Under the pieces are notes generated by a model that worked only from the letters and a program-made list of their open reading frames with translations, was not told the origin of the DNA and did no database searches. Positions 2,788 to 34,855 of a stretch of DNA of 64,000 bases are shown here, in pieces; position 1 is the stretch's first letter, and every line of letters begins with the position of its first letter. Position numbers and translations under genes: made by a program. Origin of the DNA: Clavibacter tessellarius (GTDB lineage: Bacteria; Actinomycetota; Actinomycetes; Actinomycetales; Microbacteriaceae); contig NZ_LQXA01000003.1 in the NCBI RefSeq assembly GCF_001618005.1, positions 1 to 64,000 of the forward strand. The letters are read 5' to 3'.

Positions 2788-4077
2788 ATGCCCGCAGTAG
2801 TGATCATCGGAGCCCAGTGGGGGGACGAGGGCAAGGGACGCGCGACCGACCTCCTCGGCAGCCGCGTCGACTACGTCGTGAAGTTCAACGGCGGCAACAA
2901 CGCCGGCCACACGGTCGTCGTCGGCGACGAGAAGTACGCGCTGCACCTGCTGCCGTCGGGCATCCTCACGCCGGGCGTCGTGCCCGTCATCGGCAACGGC
3001 GTCGTCGTCGACATCGAGGTGCTGTTCCACGAGCTCGACGCGCTCGCCGCCCGCGGCGTGGACGTCTCGCGCCTCCGCGTCAGCGCGAACGCGCACGTCA
3101 TCACGCACTACCACCGCACCATCGACAAGGTCACGGAGCGCTTCCTCGGCAAGCGCCAGATCGGCACCACCGGCCGCGGCATCGGGCCTACGTACGCCGA
3201 CAAGATCAACCGCGTCGGCATCCGGATCCAGGACCTCTTCGACGAGAACATCCTGCGCCAGAAGGTGGAGGCGGCCCTCGACGCCAAGAACCACATGCTC
3301 GTCAAGATCTACAACCGCCGCGCCATCTCGGCCGACGAGATCGTGGAGAGCCTGCTCTCCTACGTGGAGCGCCTGCGGCCCATGGTCGGCGACGCGTCGC
3401 TCGAGCTGAACGCCGCGCTGGACGAGGGCAAGACCGTGCTCTTCGAGGCCGGCCAGGCCACCATGCTCGACATCGACCACGGCACGTACCCGTTCGTCAC
3501 GTCCTCCAGCGCCACCTCGGGCGGCGCGGCCACGGGCTCGGGCGTCGCGCCCAACCGGCTCGAGCGGATCATCGCGGTCGTCAAGGCGTACACGACCCGC
3601 GTCGGCGCCGGCCCGTTCCCCACCGAGCTGCACGACGCGTCGGGCGAGTACCTGCGCGCCAAGGGCTTCGAGTTCGGCACCACCACCGGCCGCCCGCGCC
3701 GCTGCGGCTGGTACGACGCGCCCATCGCGCGCTACACGGCGCGCATCAACGGCGTCACCGACTTCGTGCTCACCAAGCTCGACGTGCTCTCGGGCCTCGC
3801 GACCATCCCGGTCTGCGTCGCCTACGACGTCGACGGCGTGCGCCACGACGAGGTGCCCGTCTCGCAGTCCGACTTCCACCACGCCACGCCCGTCTACGAG
3901 GAGCTGCCGGGCTGGCAGGAGGACATCACGGGCTGCCGCACCTTCGCCGACCTGCCGAAGAACGCGCAGGACTACGTGATGGCCATCGAGCGCATGAGCG
4001 GCGCCCGCATCTCGGCCGTCGGCGTGGGCCCGGAGCGCGAGCAGGTCGTCGTGCTGCACGACCTCCTCGAGGCCTGA
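2788..4077 (+). CDS. purA: Adenylosuccinate synthetase
   Basis: Catalyses the GTP-dependent joining of IMP and aspartate to adenylosuccinate, the first committed step from IMP to AMP. The 429-residue protein begins [18 protein letters not shown], which holds the catalytic Asp and the P-loop-like GDEGKG segment. It continues with [22 protein letters not shown] and [21 protein letters not shown] motifs, all diagnostic. Length matches the bacterial enzyme. The start is preceded by a clear Shine-Dalgarno (gaggag). Other purine genes (purSQL, purC, purD) are on the opposite strand far to the right, so this gene is a separate unit. Confidence 0.98.
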
Positions 4078-4169
4078 CCCTGATCCAGGACGGCTGGGCC
4101 GACGACGCCCGCCTCGGCACGGACGCCGCCGACCTCGCGCGCTTCCTCAGCCGGGCCGACGCGCGCACC

Positions 4170-4298
4170 ATGAACCGCGAGCGACTCCAGGCGGATCTCG
4201 ACATGGGCCAGGAGCAGTACGTGGCGGCGTGGCGCGAGCTGCACCGCTTCGGCTACGTGTCGTCGGCGGAGCTGCGGCGGCTGGTCGTCGAGCGGTAG
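4170..4298 (+). CDS. Small hypothetical protein whose 3' end holds the left 25-bp repeat
   Basis: Short frame of 42 residues from ATG 4170, ending in the residues LRRLVVER and a stop. The frame stays open upstream to the purA stop with protein-like sequence (QDGWADDARLGTDAADLARF), but I see no ATG, GTG or TTG there, so the true start is uncertain. No family recognised. Its last codons and stop coincide with the left copy of the 25-bp repeat that brackets the following cassette. This makes it resemble a gene whose 3' end was used as an insertion target and rebuilt. Confidence 0.4.
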   Translation: MNRERLQADLDMGQEQYVAAWRELHRFGYVSSAELRRLVVER

Positions 4299-4299
4299 G
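4275..4299 (+). repeat. Left copy of 25-bp perfect direct repeat
   Basis: Identical over 25 bp to 5435-5459; the flanking bases differ on both sides (g versus a before, g versus a after). It covers the final codons and stop of the small frame ending at 4298. Together the two copies bracket the nucleotidyltransferase/HEPN pair, with 1,135 bp between them. Confidence 0.9.
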
Positions 4300-4343
4300 G
4301 CCCCGAGGCTCGCGCGCGCATCAGGTCAGACCCGATCGATCGA

Positions 4344-4375
4344 CCAGGATAGTTGGCGATCGACTACGATCCTGG
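4344..4375. promoter_or_regulatory. Candidate operator of the nucleotidyltransferase gene
   Basis: Perfect 7-bp inverted repeat, CCAGGAT at 4344-4350 and ATCCTGG at 4369-4375, separated by 18 bp, with the right arm ending 2 bp before the ATG at 4378. CGATCGAC also occurs twice nearby (around 4335 and 4357). As the downstream protein has a winged-helix N-terminus, autoregulation at this site is a reasonable inference. Confidence 0.4.
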
Positions 4376-4377
4376 GC

Positions 4378-4992
4378 ATGCAACTGCAGCATCCGTTCCG
4401 CACGATCACTCCCACGATCGATGGAGACGTCCTCCGCGTGCTCGCCCGGTCGGACTCGTGGTTCACGGTCGCGCGGATCCGCAGCCTCGCGGGCTCGGGA
4501 TCGCCCGAGGGCATCCGCCGGGTCCTGCGCCGGCTGGCGGAGCAAGGCGTGGTCGACACCCAGTCGGCCGGGAAGGCCGTGCTGCACAAGCTGAACCGGG
4601 ACCATCTCGCAGCTCCGGCGATCCTGGAGCTCGCGCGTCTCGATCGGGAGCTCCACGACCGCATCCGGGCCTCCCTCGCGGCCTTCCGCGTCGCACCCCT
4701 GTTCGCCGTCCTCTTCGGCTCGGGGGCGCGGCTCTCCATGCGGCTCGACAGCGACCTCGACCTGCTGCTCGTCCGGGATCGGCCCGCCTCCGACGAATGG
4801 TCCGACGACGTCTCGGAGCTCGCACGCCGGATCCATCGGTGGACGGGAAACGATCCACGGATCATCGAGTACGGTCGCGACGACATCCGCGGGGCGGCCG
4901 CGGAGGAGCCGCTCCTGGAGTCGATCGCCGACGAGGGGATCGTGTTGACGGGGAGCGCGGCGCGCTTCCGGAAGGAGGTCGCAGGCACATGA
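4378..4992 (+). CDS. Winged-helix/nucleotidyltransferase (MNT-type) protein of a HEPN/MNT pair
   Basis: A 204-residue protein with two parts. Residues 12-75 look like a winged helix-turn-helix (VLRVLARSDSWFTVARIR, then IRRVLRRLAEQGVVD). Residues 95-190 form a minimal nucleotidyltransferase with GSGAR followed by SDLDLLLV, the GSx(10-11)DxD metal-binding signature of the MNT fold. In HepT/MntA-type toxin-antitoxin systems the MNT protein neutralises a HEPN RNase by AMP transfer. Here the next gene (overlapping stop and start, ATGA) encodes a HEPN-like protein. Order is nucleotidyltransferase first, unlike many hepT-mntA pairs. The fused DNA-binding domain suggests it also represses its own promoter. 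Substrate specificity is unknown. Confidence 0.75.
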   Translation: MQLQHPFRTITPTIDGDVLRVLARSDSWFTVARIRSLAGSGSPEGIRRVLRRLAEQGVVDTQSAGKAVLHKLNRDHLAAPAILELARLDRELHDRIRASLAAFRVAPLFAVLFGSGARLSMRLDSDLDLLLVRDRPASDEWSDDVSELARRIHRWTGNDPRIIEYGRDDIRGAAAEEPLLESIADEGIVLTGSAARFRKEVAGT

Positions 4993-5389
4993 CGCCGACT
5001 CGCGAAGCAGGGCGGACCGAGGCGGACGGTCGATTCCGCAAGGCGAGGCAGTTCGCGGACGCCGCGGAGCTGTTCGCCGACGCGGCCTCCGATGACGCCG
5101 ACGAGTTCGGCGATGCCTACGTCACCCTCGCGGTGCATTCCGGCATCGCCTCCGGGGACGTCATCTCGATCGTCGCCAGCGGTGAGTACTCCCCGACGGG
5201 CAACCACCAGGAGTCGGTGGCGATGCTCCGCCGGGCGGACCCGGTGCGGCCAAGCACCTCGAGAGGCTGCTCGCTCTGAAGACCAAGGCGGGCTACGCGC
5301 ATCGCCCCGTCTCCTCGGACGACGTGGCCAGGGCGCGTCGCGCACACGAGGCGCTGCTGGAGATCGCGTCCGCGGTGGTGGCTGGATAG
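4989..5389 (+). pseudogene. HEPN-like protein gene broken by a -1 frameshift
   Basis: Starts at ATG 4989, overlapping the previous stop. Frame 1 gives MTPTREAGRTEADGRFRKAR, then AYVTLAVHSGIASGDVISI and NHQESVAMLRRADP, after which it runs into unrelated residues and stops at 5279. Near 5238-5246 the family-like sequence continues in the -1 frame as GAAKHLERLLALKTKAGYAH and on to LEIASAVVAG, stopping at 5389. Joined, the product would be about 133 residues, normal for these HEPN-like partners. The simplest reading is loss of one base; the C-terminal helix with the KTKAGYAH segment is lost. No classical slippery heptamer is present, so programmed frameshifting is unlikely. A sequencing error is the main alternative. 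Confidence 0.7.
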
Positions 5390-5434
5390 CGCTGCACGAC
5401 TCGCGGCTCGCGGCTCGCGCAGCAGGTGGTGTCA

Positions 5435-5459
5435 CGGCGGCTGGTCGTCGAGCGGTAGG
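5435..5459 (+). repeat. Right copy of 25-bp perfect direct repeat
   Basis: Second copy of the sequence at 4275-4299, starting 46 bp after the end of the broken HEPN gene and just before the PadR promoter region. A 7-bp tandem (ctcgcgg, about three copies) lies shortly upstream at 5399-5418. Confidence 0.9.
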
Positions 5460-5533: not shown

Positions 5534-5857
5534 ATGACGAGGGACCCGCTGCTGCCGCTCACCGAGACGGTGGCCTGCATCCTGCTCGCCCTGCGCGAGC
5601 CGGCGCACGGGTACGCGATCATGGCGCGCGTCGAGGAGATGAGCGAGGGCGCGGTGCGCCTCGCGCCGGGGACGCTCTACGGCGCCCTCGACACGCTCGT
5701 GAAGCAGCGGCTCATCACCCGGGTGGCGAGCGAGGATCCGCGGCGCAAGGTGTACCTCATCACCGACCGGGGATCCGAGGTGCTCGCGCAGGACGCCGAG
5801 CGCATGGCCCACCTCGTGCGGCTGCACGACCGCGGCCGGGGGAGCAGGGAGGGATGA
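5534..5857 (+). CDS. PadR family transcriptional regulator
   Basis: 107-residue DNA-binding protein with the PadR winged helix: LTETVACILLALREPAHGYAI, then a recognition region with LAPGTLYGALDTLVKQRLI and the wing RRKVYLITDRGSEVL. It lacks the longer C-terminal dimerisation part seen in some PadR proteins, so it belongs to the short subfamily. The ATG at 5534 follows gaggagg. It is the first gene of a two-gene unit; its last four bases (ATGA) hold the start of the DUF2812 gene. A palindrome immediately upstream is the likely operator. Confidence 0.9.
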   Translation: MTRDPLLPLTETVACILLALREPAHGYAIMARVEEMSEGAVRLAPGTLYGALDTLVKQRLITRVASEDPRRKVYLITDRGSEVLAQDAERMAHLVRLHDRGRGSREG

Positions 5858-6483
5858 CCATGGTGATCAGGTTCTTCGTCGACTTCGACGAGGAGGAGCG
5901 CTGGCTCGACCGGATGGCGGCCGAGGGGCGGCTGATGCGGAGGCGCGGGTTCGTCTACACGTCGACGGACATCGAGCCCGGATCCGCCGTCGTGCGGATC
6001 GACTACCGGCCGAGCATGACGGCGGCCGACTTCGCCGACTACGTGCAGCTCTTCGCCGACGCGGGCTGGAGGCACATCAGCGGCAGCCGCAGGAGCGGCA
6101 CGCAGCACTTCGCGTCCACGACGGCGGATGCGGACGCCGAGATCTTCTCCGACGCCCGGTCGCGGGCCGAGCGGTACAAGCGCGCGCTCGACGTGAACGC
6201 GGCGGTGCTCCTGCCGCTGCTGGTGGTGGTGTTCGTCCTCGCCGCGACGGAGGGATCCGGCGTCCGCGCGATCCTGCGCCCGGACGAGTGGTACCTGACG
6301 CCCGGCCTCTGGGAGATGGAGGGGTGGCGGTTCGCCGGCGCGTTCCTGTTCGAGACGGTGTTCGTGGCGATGCGGGTGGGACTGCCGCTGCTCCTCGTGG
6401 TCGGGTGCGTCGTGATGCTCGTGACGGCGGTGCGGCAGGGGATCCTCTATCGGCGCGCGGTCGCGGCGGCGGCGGAGGCGTAG
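5854..6483 (+). CDS. DUF2812 domain membrane protein
   Basis: 209-residue protein. The N-terminal 100 residues (FFVDFDEEERWLDRMAAEG, WRHISGSR) fit the DUF2812 domain. Two hydrophobic segments follow, at about residues 116-135 and 165-190, so it is probably an inner-membrane protein with the domain in the cytoplasm. DUF2812 genes are commonly paired with PadR regulators, exactly as here, with a 4-bp ATGA overlap. Function is unknown; a sensor or transport accessory role is a guess. Confidence 0.75.
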   Translation: MTMVIRFFVDFDEEERWLDRMAAEGRLMRRRGFVYTSTDIEPGSAVVRIDYRPSMTAADFADYVQLFADAGWRHISGSRRSGTQHFASTTADADAEIFSDARSRAERYKRALDVNAAVLLPLLVVVFVLAATEGSGVRAILRPDEWYLTPGLWEMEGWRFAGAFLFETVFVAMRVGLPLLLVVGCVVMLVTAVRQGILYRRAVAAAAEA

Positions 6484-6552
6484 GTCCCACCGTCCTCCAC
6501 GGCCAGGCCCGGCGTCGCGCCGACTCCGTCGCGGCGGCGGTATGGTCATCCC

Positions 6553-6648
6553 GAACACGGGAGTCCGGTAGGCCGGGCTGAGAGGAAGACCACCAGTCTT
6601 CGACCGTAAGAACCTGATCTGGATCATGCCAGCGCAGGGAGGCATCTC
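6553..6648 (+). ncRNA. TPP (THI-box) riboswitch
   Basis: The region contains the conserved THI-box blocks in order: ggccgggctgagagg (the CUGAGA motif), a variable arm with the hairpin agaccaccagtctt, then gaccgtaagaacctgatctg (ACCUGAUCUGG motif) and gatcatgccagcgcaggga, the last helix strand. It ends about 60 bp before the GTG of ykoF. It should switch the ykoFEDC operon off when thiamine pyrophosphate is plentiful. Confidence 0.95.
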
Positions 6649-6710
6649 TTGAGGGACCGCGCATCCGCGCGCGTCCCACCCGTGCATCCGCGACCACGGA
6701 AGGCACGCGC

Positions 6711-7340
6711 GTGACCAGCACCGCATCCCCCACCACCCGCCTCGAGGCGGCGCCCACCCCCGAGGAGTTCGGCGTCGGCGCCCGGCTCAGCCTCGCCGTC
6801 ATGCGCGACGACTTCGTCGACGTGATCCTCGGCGCGCTCGCCGCGACGCCCGCCGACGGCCTCGTCGTCGAGACCGACGACGTGAGCACGTTCGTCGGCG
6901 GGTCCGAGCAGGACATCGTCCGCTGGCTCGTCGCCCTGCTCGCGCACGCCGCCGGATCCGGCGCGCACGTGCAGGCGACCATCGCGTTCTCGCGGGGCTG
7001 CCCGGGCGAGGTCGCGTGCGGCACGGGCGTCGTGCGCGTCGGCGAGGTGCCGGCGGCGGACGCCACCGGGATCGCCGCGTCCGCGCAGTGGGCGCTGTAC
7101 CCGCTGTCCGACGCGGCCTCGGCGGATCACATGAAGGACATCCACGCGGCCATCGACCACGCCCGCACGGTCGGCACCTTCGCCGGGTCGCAGCACTTCG
7201 TGACGGCGCTCCGCGGCGACCTCGCCGACGTGATCACCACGGCCGCCGCCGGCTGGGTGCTCGTGGGCCGCTCGGTGGCGCACGTCACCAGCCACCTCAC
7301 CGTCTCGTTGAACAGCCCGAGCCGGACGGCCGGCGCATGA
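6711..7340 (+). CDS. ykoF: YkoF-type thiamine/HMP-binding protein
   Basis: 209-residue cytoplasmic protein of the YkoF family, which binds the thiamine precursor hydroxymethylpyrimidine in B. subtilis. Two related halves are visible: GARLSLAVMRDDFVDVILGA near the N-terminus and a second, SAQWALYPLSDAASADHMKD, near residue 123. The GTG start at 6711 is the first codon after the TPP riboswitch. It overlaps ykoE by ATGA and is the first gene of ykoFEDC, a complete ECF-type uptake operon for a thiamine precursor. The family assignment rests on the sequence pattern and on the operon order. Confidence 0.88.
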   Translation: MTSTASPTTRLEAAPTPEEFGVGARLSLAVMRDDFVDVILGALAATPADGLVVETDDVSTFVGGSEQDIVRWLVALLAHAAGSGAHVQATIAFSRGCPGEVACGTGVVRVGEVPAADATGIAASAQWALYPLSDAASADHMKDIHAAIDHARTVGTFAGSQHFVTALRGDLADVITTAAAGWVLVGRSVAHVTSHLTVSLNSPSRTAGA

Positions 7341-15592: not shown

Positions 15593-16270
15593 ATGGACGA
15601 CACCATCACGGTCTTCGAGAAGGGCCGCGGCACGCAGAAGCCAGCGCCGCGGAAGCGCCGCGCGGGCATGGCCGTCGGCATCGCCGGCGCCTCCCTCGGC
15701 CTCGTCGCACTCCTCTCCTCGGCGGCGTTCGCCGACGGGAACGGCGGCGACACCAGCGGCGCCACCGGATCCGGGAGCGGCACGACCGCCACCTGCCCGG
15801 CGCCGCCCGCGCTGCCGGACGGATCCACGCCGCCCGCGCTCCCGACGCCGTCGAAGAACGCCGACGGATCCACCGCCACCGTGCCCGCGCCGCCGACGAA
15901 CGCGGACGGGACGCCGGCCACGCCGCCCACCCCGCCGACGCCGCCCACGCCGTCGAAGAACGCCGACGGATCCACCGCCACCGTGCCCGCGCCGCCGACG
16001 AACGCGGACGGCACGCCGGCCACGCCGCCCACCCCGCCCACGCCTCCGACCAACGCGGACGGATCCACGGCCACCGTGCCGGCCCCGCCCGCCGACGGCT
16101 GCGCGCCGCCCGCCCCGCCGGTCGGCAAGGACGGCACGGCACCCACCCCGCCCGCCGCTCCCGCGGCCCCGGGGACGACCGGCGGCGCCACCGCCCCGGC
16201 CGCTCCGGCCGCTCCGCAGCAGTCCGGCGGCGGCTCGGCCACGACGCCGGCGCCCACGACCGGCAGCTGA
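15593..16270 (+). CDS. Membrane-anchored proline-rich repeat protein
   Basis: 225-residue protein of unknown function. A short basic cytoplasmic head (KPAPRKRRAG) precedes one hydrophobic helix at about residues 25-46 that is either a signal peptide or an anchor. The exported part is low-complexity Pro/Thr/Ala with an imperfect 34-residue repeat (SKNADGSTATVPAPPTNADG plus TPATPPTPP), about two and a half copies; in DNA the unit is 102 bp. Two Cys residues flank the repeats. It is divergent from the two-component pair and probably controlled by it. Such proteins often span or stick to the cell wall. Confidence 0.7.
   Translation: MDDTITVFEKGRGTQKPAPRKRRAGMAVGIAGASLGLVALLSSAAFADGNGGDTSGATGSGSGTTATCPAPPALPDGSTPPALPTPSKNADGSTATVPAPPTNADGTPATPPTPPTPPTPSKNADGSTATVPAPPTNADGTPATPPTPPTPPTNADGSTATVPAPPADGCAPPAPPVGKDGTAPTPPAAPAAPGTTGGATAPAAPAAPQQSGGGSATTPAPTTGS
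15851..16090 (+). repeat. 102-bp tandem repeat inside the proline-rich gene
   Basis: The unit beginning tcgaagaacgccgacggatc at 15851 recurs at 15953, giving a 102-bp period, and a shortened third copy begins near 16052. The repeat is in frame, so copy-number changes would alter length without breaking the protein. Confidence 0.75.
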
Positions 16271-29226: not shown

Positions 29227-29694
29227 TCAGTTTCCGTTCGGCGCAGGGGCGTCATCGTCGCCGAATATCTTCCTCAAGCGTCCGTCGAGCCAGTCCTCGG
29301 CGCCTTCTTCCATGATCTTCGCGGGGTGGTTGGCGTACATGGGTTCGTGTGATAGCTGCATGTCAAGCTGTCGTATGACGGTGTCGTACGCCACGCGGTA
29401 TTGCGTCGGCACGGGGGCGCCGAGCTCGCGGAGCCGCGTCTCGGCCGCCTTGAGGTCCTTGAGCAGGAAGCGCTGCACGGCCACGGTCCGGTCCGGGTCG
29501 GCGTCCACGCCGCGTAGCTCGCTGGCGTAGATGACGGAGCCATCCTGCTCGAAGAAGACGTTCGCGTACGTCCTATCTCGCTCGGAGGCGGCGTAGACGA
29601 ATATCCGGGTCAGGTCCGGAGCGCCGTCGGAGTACTCGAGGGCCAGGGATACCCAGCTCTCGATGAGTTCCGCCAAGACCTGCTCTTGATCCAT
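29227..29694 (-). CDS. DUF600/YezG-like immunity protein (copy b)
   Basis: 155 residues from ATG 29694 (MDQEQVLAELIESWVSLALE). Very close to copy a at 30304-30771: both end in EDWLDGRLRKIFGDDDAPAP and share long identical DNA in their 3' halves, so they are recent duplicates. A gagagaaaagg-type ribosome site precedes the ATG, matching copy a in position and supporting this start over the longer frame. Its product probably binds and blocks a specific toxin; which one cannot be told. Confidence 0.6.
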   Translation of the reverse strand: MDQEQVLAELIESWVSLALEYSDGAPDLTRIFVYAASERDRTYANVFFEQDGSVIYASELRGVDADPDRTVAVQRFLLKDLKAAETRLRELGAPVPTQYRVAYDTVIRQLDMQLSHEPMYANHPAKIMEEGAEDWLDGRLRKIFGDDDAPAPNGN

Positions 29695-29754
29695 CCGTCG
29701 CCTTTTCTCTCTCAATGGGAAGCGATGATCATCCACTCGCCATTGCAGCGGAGA

Positions 29755-30270
29755 TCATCGATCGAACTTGCCCAGATGCTCCCAGTCGCCGAACTGGGGC
29801 ACTCGTTCCCAATGGCGATCCATCTTCACCTCTCGGTACTCTGAGACGTGAGTGAGTGGATCTGCGTCATCCATGACGACGTGCTTGGCGTAGCCTTCGG
29901 GCTTGAAGACGAACTCCTCTACGGCGTTGGCCTCGTTGATCCGATGGAAGGACCGATCGGCGGGATAGCGGTGCTCCGTCACGTTGGACATGAAGAGCCG
30001 GCCCTGCAGGTTCGTGAACCCGTATCGAAAGCGCTGGCGGCCGAGTTCGTCGAGAAATGAGACATTGACGAAGTCGGCATGAGGGATGACTTCGAGCAGG
30101 AATTCAGGCACCGTGCGATCTCGGGCGTCATCCTTGAGTGCCGCGACGGAGAACCAATGGTCGGGCTCGGGGACCAGGCCGTCGAAACGGTTCCGTGCGT
30201 CGGCCTCCGACAATGGATTGATGGGCTCGTTGAATTCGCCGTCCCATCTTTCGCAGTAGATGTACTTCAC
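29755..30270 (-). CDS. Hypothetical protein within the immunity array
   Basis: 171-residue soluble protein starting MKYIYCERWDGEFNEPINPL. No family recognised. It is aromatic and acidic (GYAKHVVMDDADPLTHVSEY, HWERVPQFGDWEHLGKF), features common in immunity proteins, and lies between two DUF600-like copies in the same direction. Base composition is lower in GC than the neighbours. Role as an immunity protein is inferred only from position and character. Confidence 0.55.
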   Translation of the reverse strand: MKYIYCERWDGEFNEPINPLSEADARNRFDGLVPEPDHWFSVAALKDDARDRTVPEFLLEVIPHADFVNVSFLDELGRQRFRYGFTNLQGRLFMSNVTEHRYPADRSFHRINEANAVEEFVFKPEGYAKHVVMDDADPLTHVSEYREVKMDRHWERVPQFGDWEHLGKFDR

Positions 30271-30303
30271 CGGGAGTCCTCGAAGGCGTGGGCGTGGTCG
30301 ATC

Positions 30304-30771
30304 TCAGCCTCCGCTCGGCGCAGGGGCGTCATCGTCACCGAATATCTTCCTCAAGCGCCCGTCGAGCCAGTCCTCGGCGCCTTCTTCCATGATCTTCGTG
30401 GGGCGGTTCGCGTACACGGGTTCGTATGATAGCTGCATATCGAGCTGACGTATGACGGTGTCATACGTCACTCGATATTGTGTCGGAATTGGTGCGCCCA
30501 GTTCTTGAAGCTGTGTCTCGGCCGCCTTGAGGTCGCGGAGCATGAATCGCTGCACTGTCACGGCCCGATCCCGACTGGCGTCCACGCCTTCGAGCTCGTT
30601 CGCATACACGACGGATCCCCTCGGCTCGAAGAACATGTTCGCGTAAGCGCTGTCTCGCTCAGGCGCACCATATACGAATATCTTTGTCAGATCGGGGGCG
30701 CCGTCCGCATACTCGAGGCCCAGTGACACCCAGTTCCGGATGAGGTCGTTCAAGATCGCCGCGTGATCCAT
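30304..30771 (-). CDS. DUF600/YezG-like immunity protein (copy a)
   Basis: 155 residues from ATG 30771 (MDHAAILNDLIRNWVSLGLE), with ggaggaaag upstream; an ATG six codons earlier is possible. Motifs as in copy b: LTKIFVYGAPERDSAYANMF, then PTQYRVTYDTVIRQLDMQLS and the same C-terminus. First gene of the leftward four-gene array. The long open frame that continues upstream through the ATP-grasp gene is an artefact of frame overlap. Confidence 0.6.
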   Translation of the reverse strand: MDHAAILNDLIRNWVSLGLEYADGAPDLTKIFVYGAPERDSAYANMFFEPRGSVVYANELEGVDASRDRAVTVQRFMLRDLKAAETQLQELGAPIPTQYRVTYDTVIRQLDMQLSYEPVYANRPTKIMEEGAEDWLDGRLRKIFGDDDAPAPSGG

Positions 30772-31979: not shown

Positions 31980-32810
31980 TCAGCGCAGGCGCACGAGCGC
32001 CTGCACGGGCAGGTGGTCGCTCATCATGCGGCCCTGCCAGGCGAAGTCGTTGACGGCGGCGGCGCGCACGTCGACGCGGTCGCTGACGAGGATCCAGTCG
32101 ATGCGCGGCGCCCCCACCACCGGCGGCCGGTAGTCGGGGAACGTGCCGAAGGCGGGCGTGGCCTGCCGCGCGGTGTCGAGCCAGGAGTCACGGAGGCCGC
32201 CGCGGCGCGTGAGCGCGTCGTAGGGCGTGGAGTCGACGGGCGCGTTGAAGTCGCCCATGAGCACGAGCGGCAGTCCGGCGAAGCGCGTGCGGACGAGCTC
32301 CGCGATGGCCTCGGCCGCGCGGTCGCGGGCCTCGGCGACGTCGTGGTCGAGGTGCGTGTCGAGCACCACGAGCGGGAGGCCGGTGGCCTCGTCCTGGAAG
32401 CGGGCCCAGGTGAGGATCCGCGGCATGGGGTTGCCCCACGTCATGCTGCCGATCACGTCCGGGGTGTCCGAGAGCCACATCACGTCATGCTCGAGGAGGG
32501 TGAGGCGGGAGGCCTGGTAGAAGATCGCGCCGTGCTCGCCGTGGCTGCCGCCCTCGCGGCCCTGCCCGATCATGCGGTACGACGGCGGCAGCGCCTTGTC
32601 GATGACCTGGATCTGCGGCCACACCGCCTCCTGCACCCCGAGCACCGTGGGCCGCTCCTGCTGGAGGAACCGGGTCAGCGGCTCCTGGCGCTCGGGCCAG
32701 TGGTCGGCCTCGCCGGGGCGGGTGCCGTGCCACGGCATGCGCACGTTGAGCGAGATCAGGTGGATGTCGTCGCCGGTCGTCGGGCCGATCGCGGGGGTCA
32801 TGCCCACCAT
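31980..32810 (-). CDS. Endonuclease/exonuclease/phosphatase family protein (copy 1)
   Basis: 276 residues of the EEP fold (DNase I/inositol phosphatase superfamily). Motifs: LISLNVRMPW (Asn), VLGVQEAVWPQ (metal-binding Glu), VVLDTHLDHDVAEARDRAA (catalytic His), VLMGDFNAP (Asp, Asn), IDWILVSD and the final SDHLPVQALVRLR (Asp-His). It has no signal peptide. It resembles the protein from 33803-34855 along its whole length. The start may be M1 or M4. Substrate may be a nucleic acid, a sugar phosphate or a lipid phosphate. Confidence 0.85.
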   Translation of the reverse strand: MVGMTPAIGPTTGDDIHLISLNVRMPWHGTRPGEADHWPERQEPLTRFLQQERPTVLGVQEAVWPQIQVIDKALPPSYRMIGQGREGGSHGEHGAIFYQASRLTLLEHDVMWLSDTPDVIGSMTWGNPMPRILTWARFQDEATGLPLVVLDTHLDHDVAEARDRAAEAIAELVRTRFAGLPLVLMGDFNAPVDSTPYDALTRRGGLRDSWLDTARQATPAFGTFPDYRPPVVGAPRIDWILVSDRVDVRAAAVNDFAWQGRMMSDHLPVQALVRLR

Positions 32811-32955
32811 TCAACCCCGCCCGCCTGATCGCCGGGCCGCGGCGCGGCGAACGGATGAGCACCCGAGCGCGATGACGACCGCGGGGTCGTCGTCGAAGCA
32901 GCGGTCGGACGCCGCCGGCGTGCGCGCGATGCGAGAGGGCTCGACGGCGCTCGGG

Positions 32956-33675
32956 TCAGCCCCGGAGGCGGGACGCGCCCGTGCGGGTCACGGCCCGCAC
33001 CGACTCGAGCACTGAATCGATGGCACGTCCGGCCTGCTCCCCGGAGGCGTCGTACGTGCTCTGCGAGCGGCGGTACGGGTCGACCACGTCGTAGTCGTCC
33101 TCCTGCGCGGGCGGCAGGGTGACGCCCCGCTGCGCCGCGATGAGCGGGATGAGCGCGCGCAGCTGCGCCGGGACGTCGCCGTCGCACGTGATGTGCTTCT
33201 CCTCCCCGCTCACCTCGACGAGGTGCGCGGAGAGCGCCGCGAACTCGCGGAGGGTGAAGGTGGAGCGGTTGGCACGCGGCACCTGGCGCACGACGGCGCT
33301 GCGGTGCTCGCGGGCCATCGTGAGCACGAGGTCCGTGCCCCGGATGATGTCGGGCGTGAGGAACCGGGCCTGGTGCTCGCTCGGGTCGCCGCCGTAGCGG
33401 ACGGACAGCTCGGCCGCCTGCTCCGGCATGCGCTGCCCGTCGGCCGCGATCGTGCCGGCGCTGGAGAAGCGCACGACCGAGTCGGCTTCGGAGGCGTCGC
33501 CGCCGAAGATCGCGCGGACCCTCGCTCGGAGCACCTGCTCTGCGAGGGGCGAGCGGCAGATGTTGCCGGAGCAGACGAACAGCACGCGGAACGGGCCGTC
33601 GTCGACGCCCGCGGTGGATGCGGCGCCGAGGGCTGCGCGTGCGGCCCTGCGGCTCGTGGGGGGGAGTTCCGACAT
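32956..33675 (-). CDS. Low-molecular-weight protein tyrosine phosphatase
   Basis: 239 residues, larger than the usual 150 because of N- and C-terminal extensions. The P-loop is VLFVCSGNICRSPLAEQ (Cys35-x5-Arg41) and the general-acid loop is DVVDPYRRS near residue 205. Bacterial relatives act on tyrosine kinases that control exopolysaccharide synthesis (Wzb/EpsP type). No kinase or capsule gene is adjacent. The gene lies between two EEP-fold paralogues, all in the same direction. Confidence 0.88.
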   Translation of the reverse strand: MSELPPTSRRAARAALGAASTAGVDDGPFRVLFVCSGNICRSPLAEQVLRARVRAIFGGDASEADSVVRFSSAGTIAADGQRMPEQAAELSVRYGGDPSEHQARFLTPDIIRGTDLVLTMAREHRSAVVRQVPRANRSTFTLREFAALSAHLVEVSGEEKHITCDGDVPAQLRALIPLIAAQRGVTLPPAQEDDYDVVDPYRRSQSTYDASGEQAGRAIDSVLESVRAVTRTGASRLRG

Positions 33676-33802
33676 GGAGGGGAGATGTGCCTTGATCTTC
33701 TCGATGGGCGCCTCGGTCTTCCGACCTTCCTCGCCCTCGGTGTACCCGCAACTGTAGCCGTAGTGGCCCTGGCCGTCCGCCTGCGGACCCGGGCCGTGCG
33801 GG

Positions 33803-34855
33803 TCAGGCGGTGCGCGCGAGGCGGACCAGCGCCTGCACGGCGGCGTGGTCCGAGGGGGAGCGACCCTGCCACGTGTACGGGTTGATGGCCGAGTCGACCA
33901 CCTCGACGCCGCGACCCGCGAGGATCCAGTCGATGCGCTCGCCCTCGGGCACCGGGTCGCCGTACGCGGTGAAGGTGCCGATGCCGGGCGTCGCGTGGTG
34001 CGCGGCCGTGGTCCAGGTGTCGGCGAGGCCGGCGTCGCGCGTGAGGATGTCGTACGCCGCCGACTCCTCGGCCGGCGCGTTGAAGTCGCCCGTGACGACG
34101 ACCGGGGCGCCCGAGGCGACCTCCTGCAGGCGCTCGGTGATGAGGTCGGCGCTCTTCACGCGGGCGAGCTCCGACTCGTGGTCGAGGTGCGTGTTGAGGT
34201 GCACGAACTCGGCGCCGCTGCGGCGGTCGCGGAAGCGCGCCCACGTCGCGATGCGGGTGGTGCTGCAGCCCCACGAGCGCGAGCCGATGAGCTCGGGCAG
34301 GTCGGACAGCCAGAACTGGTCCCACGCGACGACGTCGAGGCGGCGCTCGTCGTAGAAGATCGCGCTGTACTCGCCGCCGGACCCGCCGTCACGGCCGTAG
34401 CCGAGCATGCGGTGGTGGGGGAGCGCGCGCGCGATGGCGGGCAGCTGGGCCGAGAGGGCCTCCTGCACGCCGAGCACGGTGGGCTGCTCGAGCTGGAGGA
34501 AGCGGGCGAGCACGGGCTCGCGGTCGGCCCAGTGGTCGGGGTCGCCGGGCTCGGTGGAGGGGCGGGCCAGGCGGATGTTGCAGGTCATGACGTGCACGAG
34601 GTCGCCCTCGGCCGAGCCGATGGTCGCCTGCTGGGGCGGGGCGGGAGCGACGGGAGCCGCTGCCGCCGGGCGAGACGGAGGGGGGTCGGCCTCCGCGGTG
34701 CCGTCCGGGCCGTCGGTCGTGGTGGTCGTCTCGTCCGCGCGCGGCCGCTCGAGGAGCGCCGTGCCGGAACCGCGGGTGGGGCGTCCGATGCCCGGATCCG
34801 AGGATCCGGCGCCGTCGAACAGGTCGCGTCGGCTGGATCCGCCGCTCGCCATCAT
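33803..34855 (-). CDS. Endonuclease/exonuclease/phosphatase family protein (copy 2)
   Basis: 350 residues. The first 85 are Ser/Thr/Pro-rich and disordered (TTTTTDGPDGTAEADPPP). The EEP domain then runs VHVMTCNIRLARPSTEPGDP, VLGVQEALSAQ, FVHLNTHLDHESELAR, VVVTGDFNAP, RIDWILAG and SPSDHAAVQALVRLA, with the catalytic His, Asp and Asn positions intact. Clear paralogue of the 31980-32810 gene. The ATG at 34855 has gaggag in front, and a second ATG follows directly. Function is unknown. Confidence 0.83.
   Translation of the reverse strand: MMASGGSSRRDLFDGAGSSDPGIGRPTRGSGTALLERPRADETTTTTDGPDGTAEADPPPSRPAAAAPVAPAPPQQATIGSAEGDLVHVMTCNIRLARPSTEPGDPDHWADREPVLARFLQLEQPTVLGVQEALSAQLPAIARALPHHRMLGYGRDGGSGGEYSAIFYDERRLDVVAWDQFWLSDLPELIGSRSWGCSTTRIATWARFRDRRSGAEFVHLNTHLDHESELARVKSADLITERLQEVASGAPVVVTGDFNAPAEESAAYDILTRDAGLADTWTTAAHHATPGIGTFTAYGDPVPEGERIDWILAGRGVEVVDSAINPYTWQGRSPSDHAAVQALVRLARTA

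What the first reader, a model, noticed from the sequence alone, without database searches (positions are those of the whole stretch)
4275..5459. A two-gene nucleotidyltransferase/HEPN cassette bounded by a 25-bp perfect direct repeat
Seen: 4275-4299 and 5435-5459 are identical over 25 bp, and between them lie only the winged-helix nucleotidyltransferase gene and the HEPN-like gene. The left copy coincides with the last codons and stop of a small upstream frame, so the 3' end of a gene is kept intact on one side and left as a loose duplicate on the other. Known: integrating elements that target gene 3' ends leave exactly this layout. Inference: the toxin-antitoxin-like pair moved here as a minimal non-autonomous element mobilised in trans. 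No integrase or transposase is present, which would be a novelty for such a small cassette.
Basis: partly seen in the sequence, partly recalled or inferred. Interest (0 to 1): 0.78.

Follow-up and report, generated by a model that had tools for sequence, protein, structure and literature searches.

The report
Insertion hotspot for defence-like gene cassettes
At the end of a small gene next to purA in Clavibacter bacteria, unrelated defence-like genes come and go, and in two species they sit between exact copies of the same 23-base gene end, which suggests a docking site used by cassettes that carry no mobility gene.

Summary
The 25-bp perfect repeat is real and specific to this site. The left copy is the 3' end of a small conserved gene behind purA. 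In 18 of 18 Clavibacter genomes purA and that gene are kept up to the repeat and then diverge: 8 plain, 10 occupied. G017 joins the small gene to PadR with one copy, and G009 has an unrelated low-GC ApeA-like HEPN gene between two perfect copies of the same 23-bp core. A Type ISP restriction enzyme (G003) sits at the same point with a different right end. No recombinase lies in the G000 or G009 insert.

Sister species G016 shares it with a decayed right copy, G014 and G007 carry it with no recognisable right copy, and its divergence roughly keeps step with host genes. The HEPN gene is frame-broken in the window. The pair is an MNT/HEPN-like module whose nucleotidyltransferase carries a winged helix.

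Best reading: an att-like 23-bp site used by a recombinase acting from outside or since lost. Turnover by ordinary recombination is a serious rival. Integrase-less islands are already known.

The parts
2788..4077 (+). purA (adenylosuccinate synthetase; name recalled from the protein sequence), conserved left neighbour
   Evidence: 429-aa frame; matched in 18 of 18 genus genomes
4080..4298 (+). small conserved gene behind purA, start codon uncertain (no ATG/GTG/TTG at the place where relatives in another genus start; first in-frame ATG at 4170)
   Evidence: 10 of 299 family genomes, all of this genus and one other; 3 of 3 in that other genus, also next to purA
4275..4299 (+). left 25-bp copy; 23-bp core shared with G009 is 4276-4298
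4344..4375 (.). imperfect dyad just ahead of the nucleotidyltransferase gene, possible operator of its winged helix (by eye)
   Evidence: sequence; largely kept in G016, G014 and less so in G007
4378..4992 (+). winged-helix MNT-like nucleotidyltransferase, 204 aa
   Evidence: PDC-M05A 7.2e-14; fold
4989..5279 (+). HEPN-like partner, frame broken in this window (96 aa before stop); overlaps the preceding stop as ATGA
   Evidence: intact relatives
5435..5459 (+). right 25-bp copy, loose duplicate of the small gene's end
5534..5857 (+). PadR-family regulator, right neighbour
   Evidence: PF03551 7.5e-18
5854..6483 (+). DUF2812 protein, right neighbour
   Evidence: PF11193 5.8e-22

Best explanation
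The 3' end of the purA-linked small gene is an att-like insertion site. A 23-bp core (the last 20 coding bases plus the stop codon) is used by a site-specific recombinase that the inserts do not encode: it acts from another element, or was lost. Insertion keeps the gene intact on the left and leaves a second core on the right; recombination between the copies would restore the empty site. Cargo are single defence-like modules: an MNT/HEPN-like pair here, an ApeA-like HEPN gene in G009. SHOWN: the repeat, one-copy sites, two unrelated cargoes with nearly the same repeat limits, no recombinase in these two inserts, and a turnover hotspot. INFERRED: that a site-specific recombinase made the repeats, that it acts in trans or was lost, and that the modules act against phage. 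In this strain the pair is an old resident of the lineage, inherited or exchanged in place, and its HEPN gene is broken (or misassembled).
For: The exact 21-nt core occurs twice only in G000 and G009 of 18 genus genomes. In these two unrelated inserts the repeat limits differ by one base on each side: -23..+1 and -22..0 relative to the last base of the stop codon. G017 has one core joined to the PadR flank that lies right of the pair here. The right copy in G009 runs on into the flank of the plain species. The G009 insert is 53.7% GC against 74.0% for the window. Each further core match at up to 3 mismatches in the genus is at or below the level of the reversed control.
Against: Only 2 of 10 occupied sites have a perfect right copy. 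G016 has 17 of 24 matches; the other seven have none recognised. G003 has a decayed second copy of the purA end and small gene on its right, which a 23-bp core does not explain. No recombinase acting on the core was identified: by score, G000 and G009 have only the two tyrosine recombinases that each of 18 genomes has, and no core match at up to 3 mismatches lies within 10 kb of an accessory one (compared by eye). No convincing attP-like copy was seen in plasmids, phages or viral contigs. The pair's divergence follows the hosts, so in G000 the repeat is not explained by a recent insertion of the pair.
Confidence: 0.48

Rival explanations
1. Ordinary recombination hotspot: incoming DNA recombines through purA and other flanking genes, modules are swapped by homologous and illegitimate joining, and the short repeats are by-products (template switching, gene conversion or decayed longer duplications). 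No site-specific recombinase is involved.
For: Hotspots without mobile elements and with recombination at flanking core genes are established (PMC5635113, passages). G003 shows a decayed longer duplication. Seven of 10 occupied sites have no recognisable right copy. A stretch at 4901-5200 identical in G000 and G016 points to exchange in place. No suitable recombinase was identified.
Against: It does not predict two unrelated inserts with repeat limits within one base of each other, nor precise one-copy sites.
Confidence: 0.35
2. Relic of a larger integrase-bearing island: an element once integrated here with its own integrase, later lost all but the cargo, keeping attL and attR. This overlaps with the best explanation and differs in where the recombinase was.
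For: Repeat at a gene 3' end with one copy as the gene's own end; accessory tyrosine recombinases exist in 8 of 18 genus genomes.
Against: No integrase remnant was seen in the inserts of G000 or G009, where genes fill most of the space; no genus genome has a larger island at this spot within the stretches fetched.
Confidence: 0.17
3. Assembly or sequencing artefact at the repeat or the frame break.
For: 61-contig draft; the broken frame lies in a stretch otherwise nearly identical to G016.
Against: G009, in one contig, shows the same architecture independently with other cargo, and both repeat copies of the window run into flanks known from relatives.
Confidence: 0.04

Closest known systems
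Microcin H47 genomic island of Escherichia coli (PMC3191183)
   Same: Small island between direct repeats, encodes no recombinase, moved by functions supplied by its host
   Different: 13 kb, extensive imperfect repeats, excision and integration shown in the laboratory; here 1.1-1.4 kb, 23-25 bp repeats, no mobility shown
Integrase-type islands at gene 3' ends, e.g. SGI1 at trmE (PMC8409611, abstract start in a search listing)
   Same: Site at a gene 3' end. The layout with kept gene end and loose duplicate is recalled as typical, not read there
   Different: No integrase inside; unrelated single-module cargoes
Hotspots lacking recognisable mobile elements (PMC5635113)
   Same: High turnover at a fixed spot beside core genes, no mobility genes
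   Different: Short exact repeats with nearly equal limits at two inserts, which recombination at core genes alone does not predict
HepT/MntA (HEPN/MNT) toxin-antitoxin system (PMC7641770)
   Same: Neighbouring MNT nucleotidyltransferase with GSX10DXD and a HEPN-fold partner with a kept tyrosine
   Different: Winged helix fused to the MNT domain, RX4HXY absent from the partner, partner broken in this window

Membership tests
Integrated genomic island with attL/attR | Flanking direct repeats, one being the 3' end of a gene | tested here: met
   G000 and G009
Integrated genomic island with attL/attR | One-copy site in relatives | tested here: met
   G017 for the PadR flank; plain species for the G009 flank
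Integrated genomic island with attL/attR | Encodes its integrase | tested here: not met
   none between the copies in G000 or G009; genome-wide PF00589 places lie elsewhere
Integrated genomic island with attL/attR | Excises as a circle | not testable with these tools
   no reads held
HepT/MntA toxin-antitoxin | GSX10DXD in the nucleotidyltransferase | tested here: met
   G114, S115, D126, D128 invariant in 5 of 5; looser GS-x8-12-DxD in 29 of 29 parsed family loci
HepT/MntA toxin-antitoxin | RX4HXY in the HEPN partner | tested here: not met
   0 of 26 partners (23 family loci plus L066, L067, L039). An RX4H of the form R-x2-Y-x-H stands at the kept tyrosine in 7 of 23
HepT/MntA toxin-antitoxin | HEPN fold of the partner | tested here: met
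HepT/MntA toxin-antitoxin | HEPN toxicity, neutralised by AMP transfer | not testable with these tools
   bench assay needed
HepT/MntA toxin-antitoxin | NCBIfam MntA equivalog above cut-off | tested here: not met
   23.4 bits, cut-off 60
PADLOC candidate PDC-M05 | PDC-M05A protein | tested here: met
   7.2e-14, 50.1 bits; no curated cut-off in that library
PADLOC candidate PDC-M05 | Second component | tested here: inconclusive
   L039 partner matched only a CARF model at 0.028

The most novel reading that the evidence does not exclude
A 23-bp gene-end site serves as a docking point for unrelated one-module defence cassettes that carry no recombinase and are moved by an outside site-specific recombinase: a minimal plug-in defence site with cassettes down to about 1.1 kb.
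Probability: 0.3. Interest if true: 0.68.

Novelty: new member of a known kind. Interest (0 to 1): 0.45.

Why it matters
How single defence modules reach fixed chromosomal spots without mobility genes is an open question. This locus is a small test case: defined 23-bp limits, natural one-copy sites and two unrelated cargoes between perfect copies. Strain sequencing could tell site-specific insertion from recombination at flanking genes.

Tried and rejected
Chance repeat: rejected. Dispersed repeat: rejected; outside the genus only 1-mismatch matches appear among the 398 family genomes searched, about as many as the reversed control. Transposon with terminal inverted repeats: none seen by eye at the ends of the G000 and G009 inserts. 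tRNA target: no tRNA or tmRNA in the window.

attP elsewhere: one exact 21-nt match in viral contigs (L100), opposite the end of an unrelated open frame, taken as chance. With 39 bp, the listed plasmid rows have E 0.04 or worse and the listed phage rows 0.6 or worse; 178 and 273 further records were not listed. The nucleotidyltransferase and the small gene in viral contigs: none confirmed.

Are such pairs usually repeat-flanked? One search gave 30 loci; L096 could not be parsed. Of the other 29 the own locus has 25 bp, L085 19 bp tightly around the pair, L076 18 bp far away (the cross-comparisons reach 18), and 26 have 9-15 bp. So this is not a general property of the pair. L085's repeat looks like a regulator's dyad, and relative G430 has other genes there; left open.

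Number of gains: the pair lies in three separate places on the purA-region tree, but several inner branches have support of 15-60, so gains and losses cannot be counted.

Papers: searches for Clavibacter with island or accessory-genome terms showed no title on this spot, but searches listed only 12 of 143 and 8 of 268. In PMC11856565 the terms PDC, HEPN, hotspot, ApeA and PADLOC do not occur (term search only). Searches looked for repeat-bounded or integrase-less defence cassettes; only PMC3191183 was taken up. PMC7641770 and PMC5635113: passages; PMC3191183: abstract and passages; others: listings only.

Full report
OBSERVATION. The two 25-mers are present at the stated coordinates and identical, and they are the only matches in the 3.30-Mb own genome at up to three mismatches. 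The left copy ends a small gene found in 10 of 299 family genomes, all of this genus and one other, and next to purA in both. The right copy lies between the pair and PadR. Between the copies are a 204-aa nucleotidyltransferase and a HEPN-like partner whose frame is broken in this window; the three Clavibacter relatives that have the pair keep it intact at 133 aa. Whether the break is biological or an error of a 61-contig draft is open.

THE SITE. All 18 genus genomes match purA and the small gene up to the repeat; most then part company with the window there. The genus is Clavibacter: two of the genomes are identified through equal contig lengths (Clavibacter sp. VKM Ac-2872 = G014, C. michiganensis CASJ009 = G007). 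Eight species run almost straight into a marR-like gene (G002, G004, G005, G006, G008, G010, G012, G015). Ten are occupied: the pair in G000, G016, G014 and G007; PadR-DUF2812 without the pair in G017; an ApeA-like HEPN gene in G009 (ApeA_NTD1 6e-10, HEPN_Apea 5.6e-08); a Type ISP restriction enzyme in G003 (Type_ISP_C 4.1e-80); a 120-codon frame of unknown function in G001 and G013, shortened in G011. The stop codon is TGA in the eight plain species and G009 and TAG in the other nine.

THE REPEAT AS AN ATT-LIKE CORE. In G009 the ApeA gene stands between two perfect copies of the same core, 1453 bp apart, and the right copy runs on into the flank of the plain species. The repeat limits in G000 and G009 differ by one base on each side. 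The exact 21-nt core occurs twice only in these two of 18 genomes. G017 has one copy joined to the PadR flank that lies right of the pair in the window. G016 has a decayed right copy, 17 of 24 matches to its left copy; 2 of 8930 other windows of that locus reach that. The other seven occupied sites show none. The ApeA and Type ISP inserts have low GC (53.7% and 55.6%), the pair insert 70.4%, the window 74.0%.

NO RECOMBINASE. None was seen in the inserts of G000 and G009. Genome-wide, these two have only the two tyrosine recombinases that, by score, each of the 18 genomes has (probably XerC and XerD, recalled names); eight other species have accessory ones elsewhere. Serine resolvase matches: one in G000, four in G009, one or more in each of 18.

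AGE OF THE PAIR. On a purA-region tree G000 and G016 are sisters (100), G014 groups with G013 (95), and G007 with G015 (96) and G017 (98). Nucleotidyltransferase dS from the window to G016, G014 and G007 is 0.275, 0.351 and 0.614; purA gives 0.088, 0.133 and 0.188. Of the frames that one search printed (a filter kept those with dN/dS under 0.35 in at least one comparison), I set aside purA, the pair and one frame antisense to it; nine remain, not checked as genes. Their median dS is 0.179, 0.234 and 0.279, so the pair runs at 1.5, 1.5 and 2.2 times the median, and 8 of 9 keep the order G016, G014, G007. The pair has thus roughly kept step with its hosts: long residence with losses, or exchange in place, rather than recent arrival. 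The stretch 4901-5200, identical in G000 and G016, points to recent exchange.

COMPLICATION. In G003 the right side of the restriction gene carries a decayed piece of the purA end and small gene (77.8% over 54 bp and 82.7% over 75 bp), then a DUF2812 remnant (by eye). That looks like a duplication by ordinary recombination, so at least one insert did not come by the 23-bp core alone.

CONCLUSION. The locus is a Clavibacter hotspot with an att-like 23-bp core and integrase-less, defence-like cargo; an integrase-less island has precedent (PMC3191183). Site-specific action remains inferred.

Noticed in passing
window 6546-6654 +: TPP riboswitch above Rfam's cut-off (57.8 bits, cut-off 54.3) ahead of a frame at 6711. 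The stretch follows PadR-DUF2812 here but a reduced marR/glyoxalase region in G014.
   Followed up: partly
window 29238-30534: Exact repeats of 40, 22, 20 and 20 bp, all 1077 bp apart, as from a tandem-duplicated gene; a similar set 1832-1835 bp apart lies at 32087-34194.
   Followed up: no
window 15845-16038: 65-bp and 26-bp exact repeats with 102-bp spacing, perhaps a repetitive coding stretch.
   Followed up: no
L049, read as reverse complement, right of the Type ISP gene: Decayed second copy of the purA 3' end and small gene, followed by a DUF2812 remnant.
   Followed up: partly
L085 / L132 (G095) and L131 (G430): A homologous pair in another genus sits tightly between 19-bp repeats of a dyad; a relative has other genes there (one ImmA-like by eye) and shares the right junction.
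   Followed up: partly
stop codon of the small gene, 18 genomes: TGA in the eight plain species and G009, TAG in the other nine, which are all occupied; inserts may bring their own gene end.
   Followed up: no
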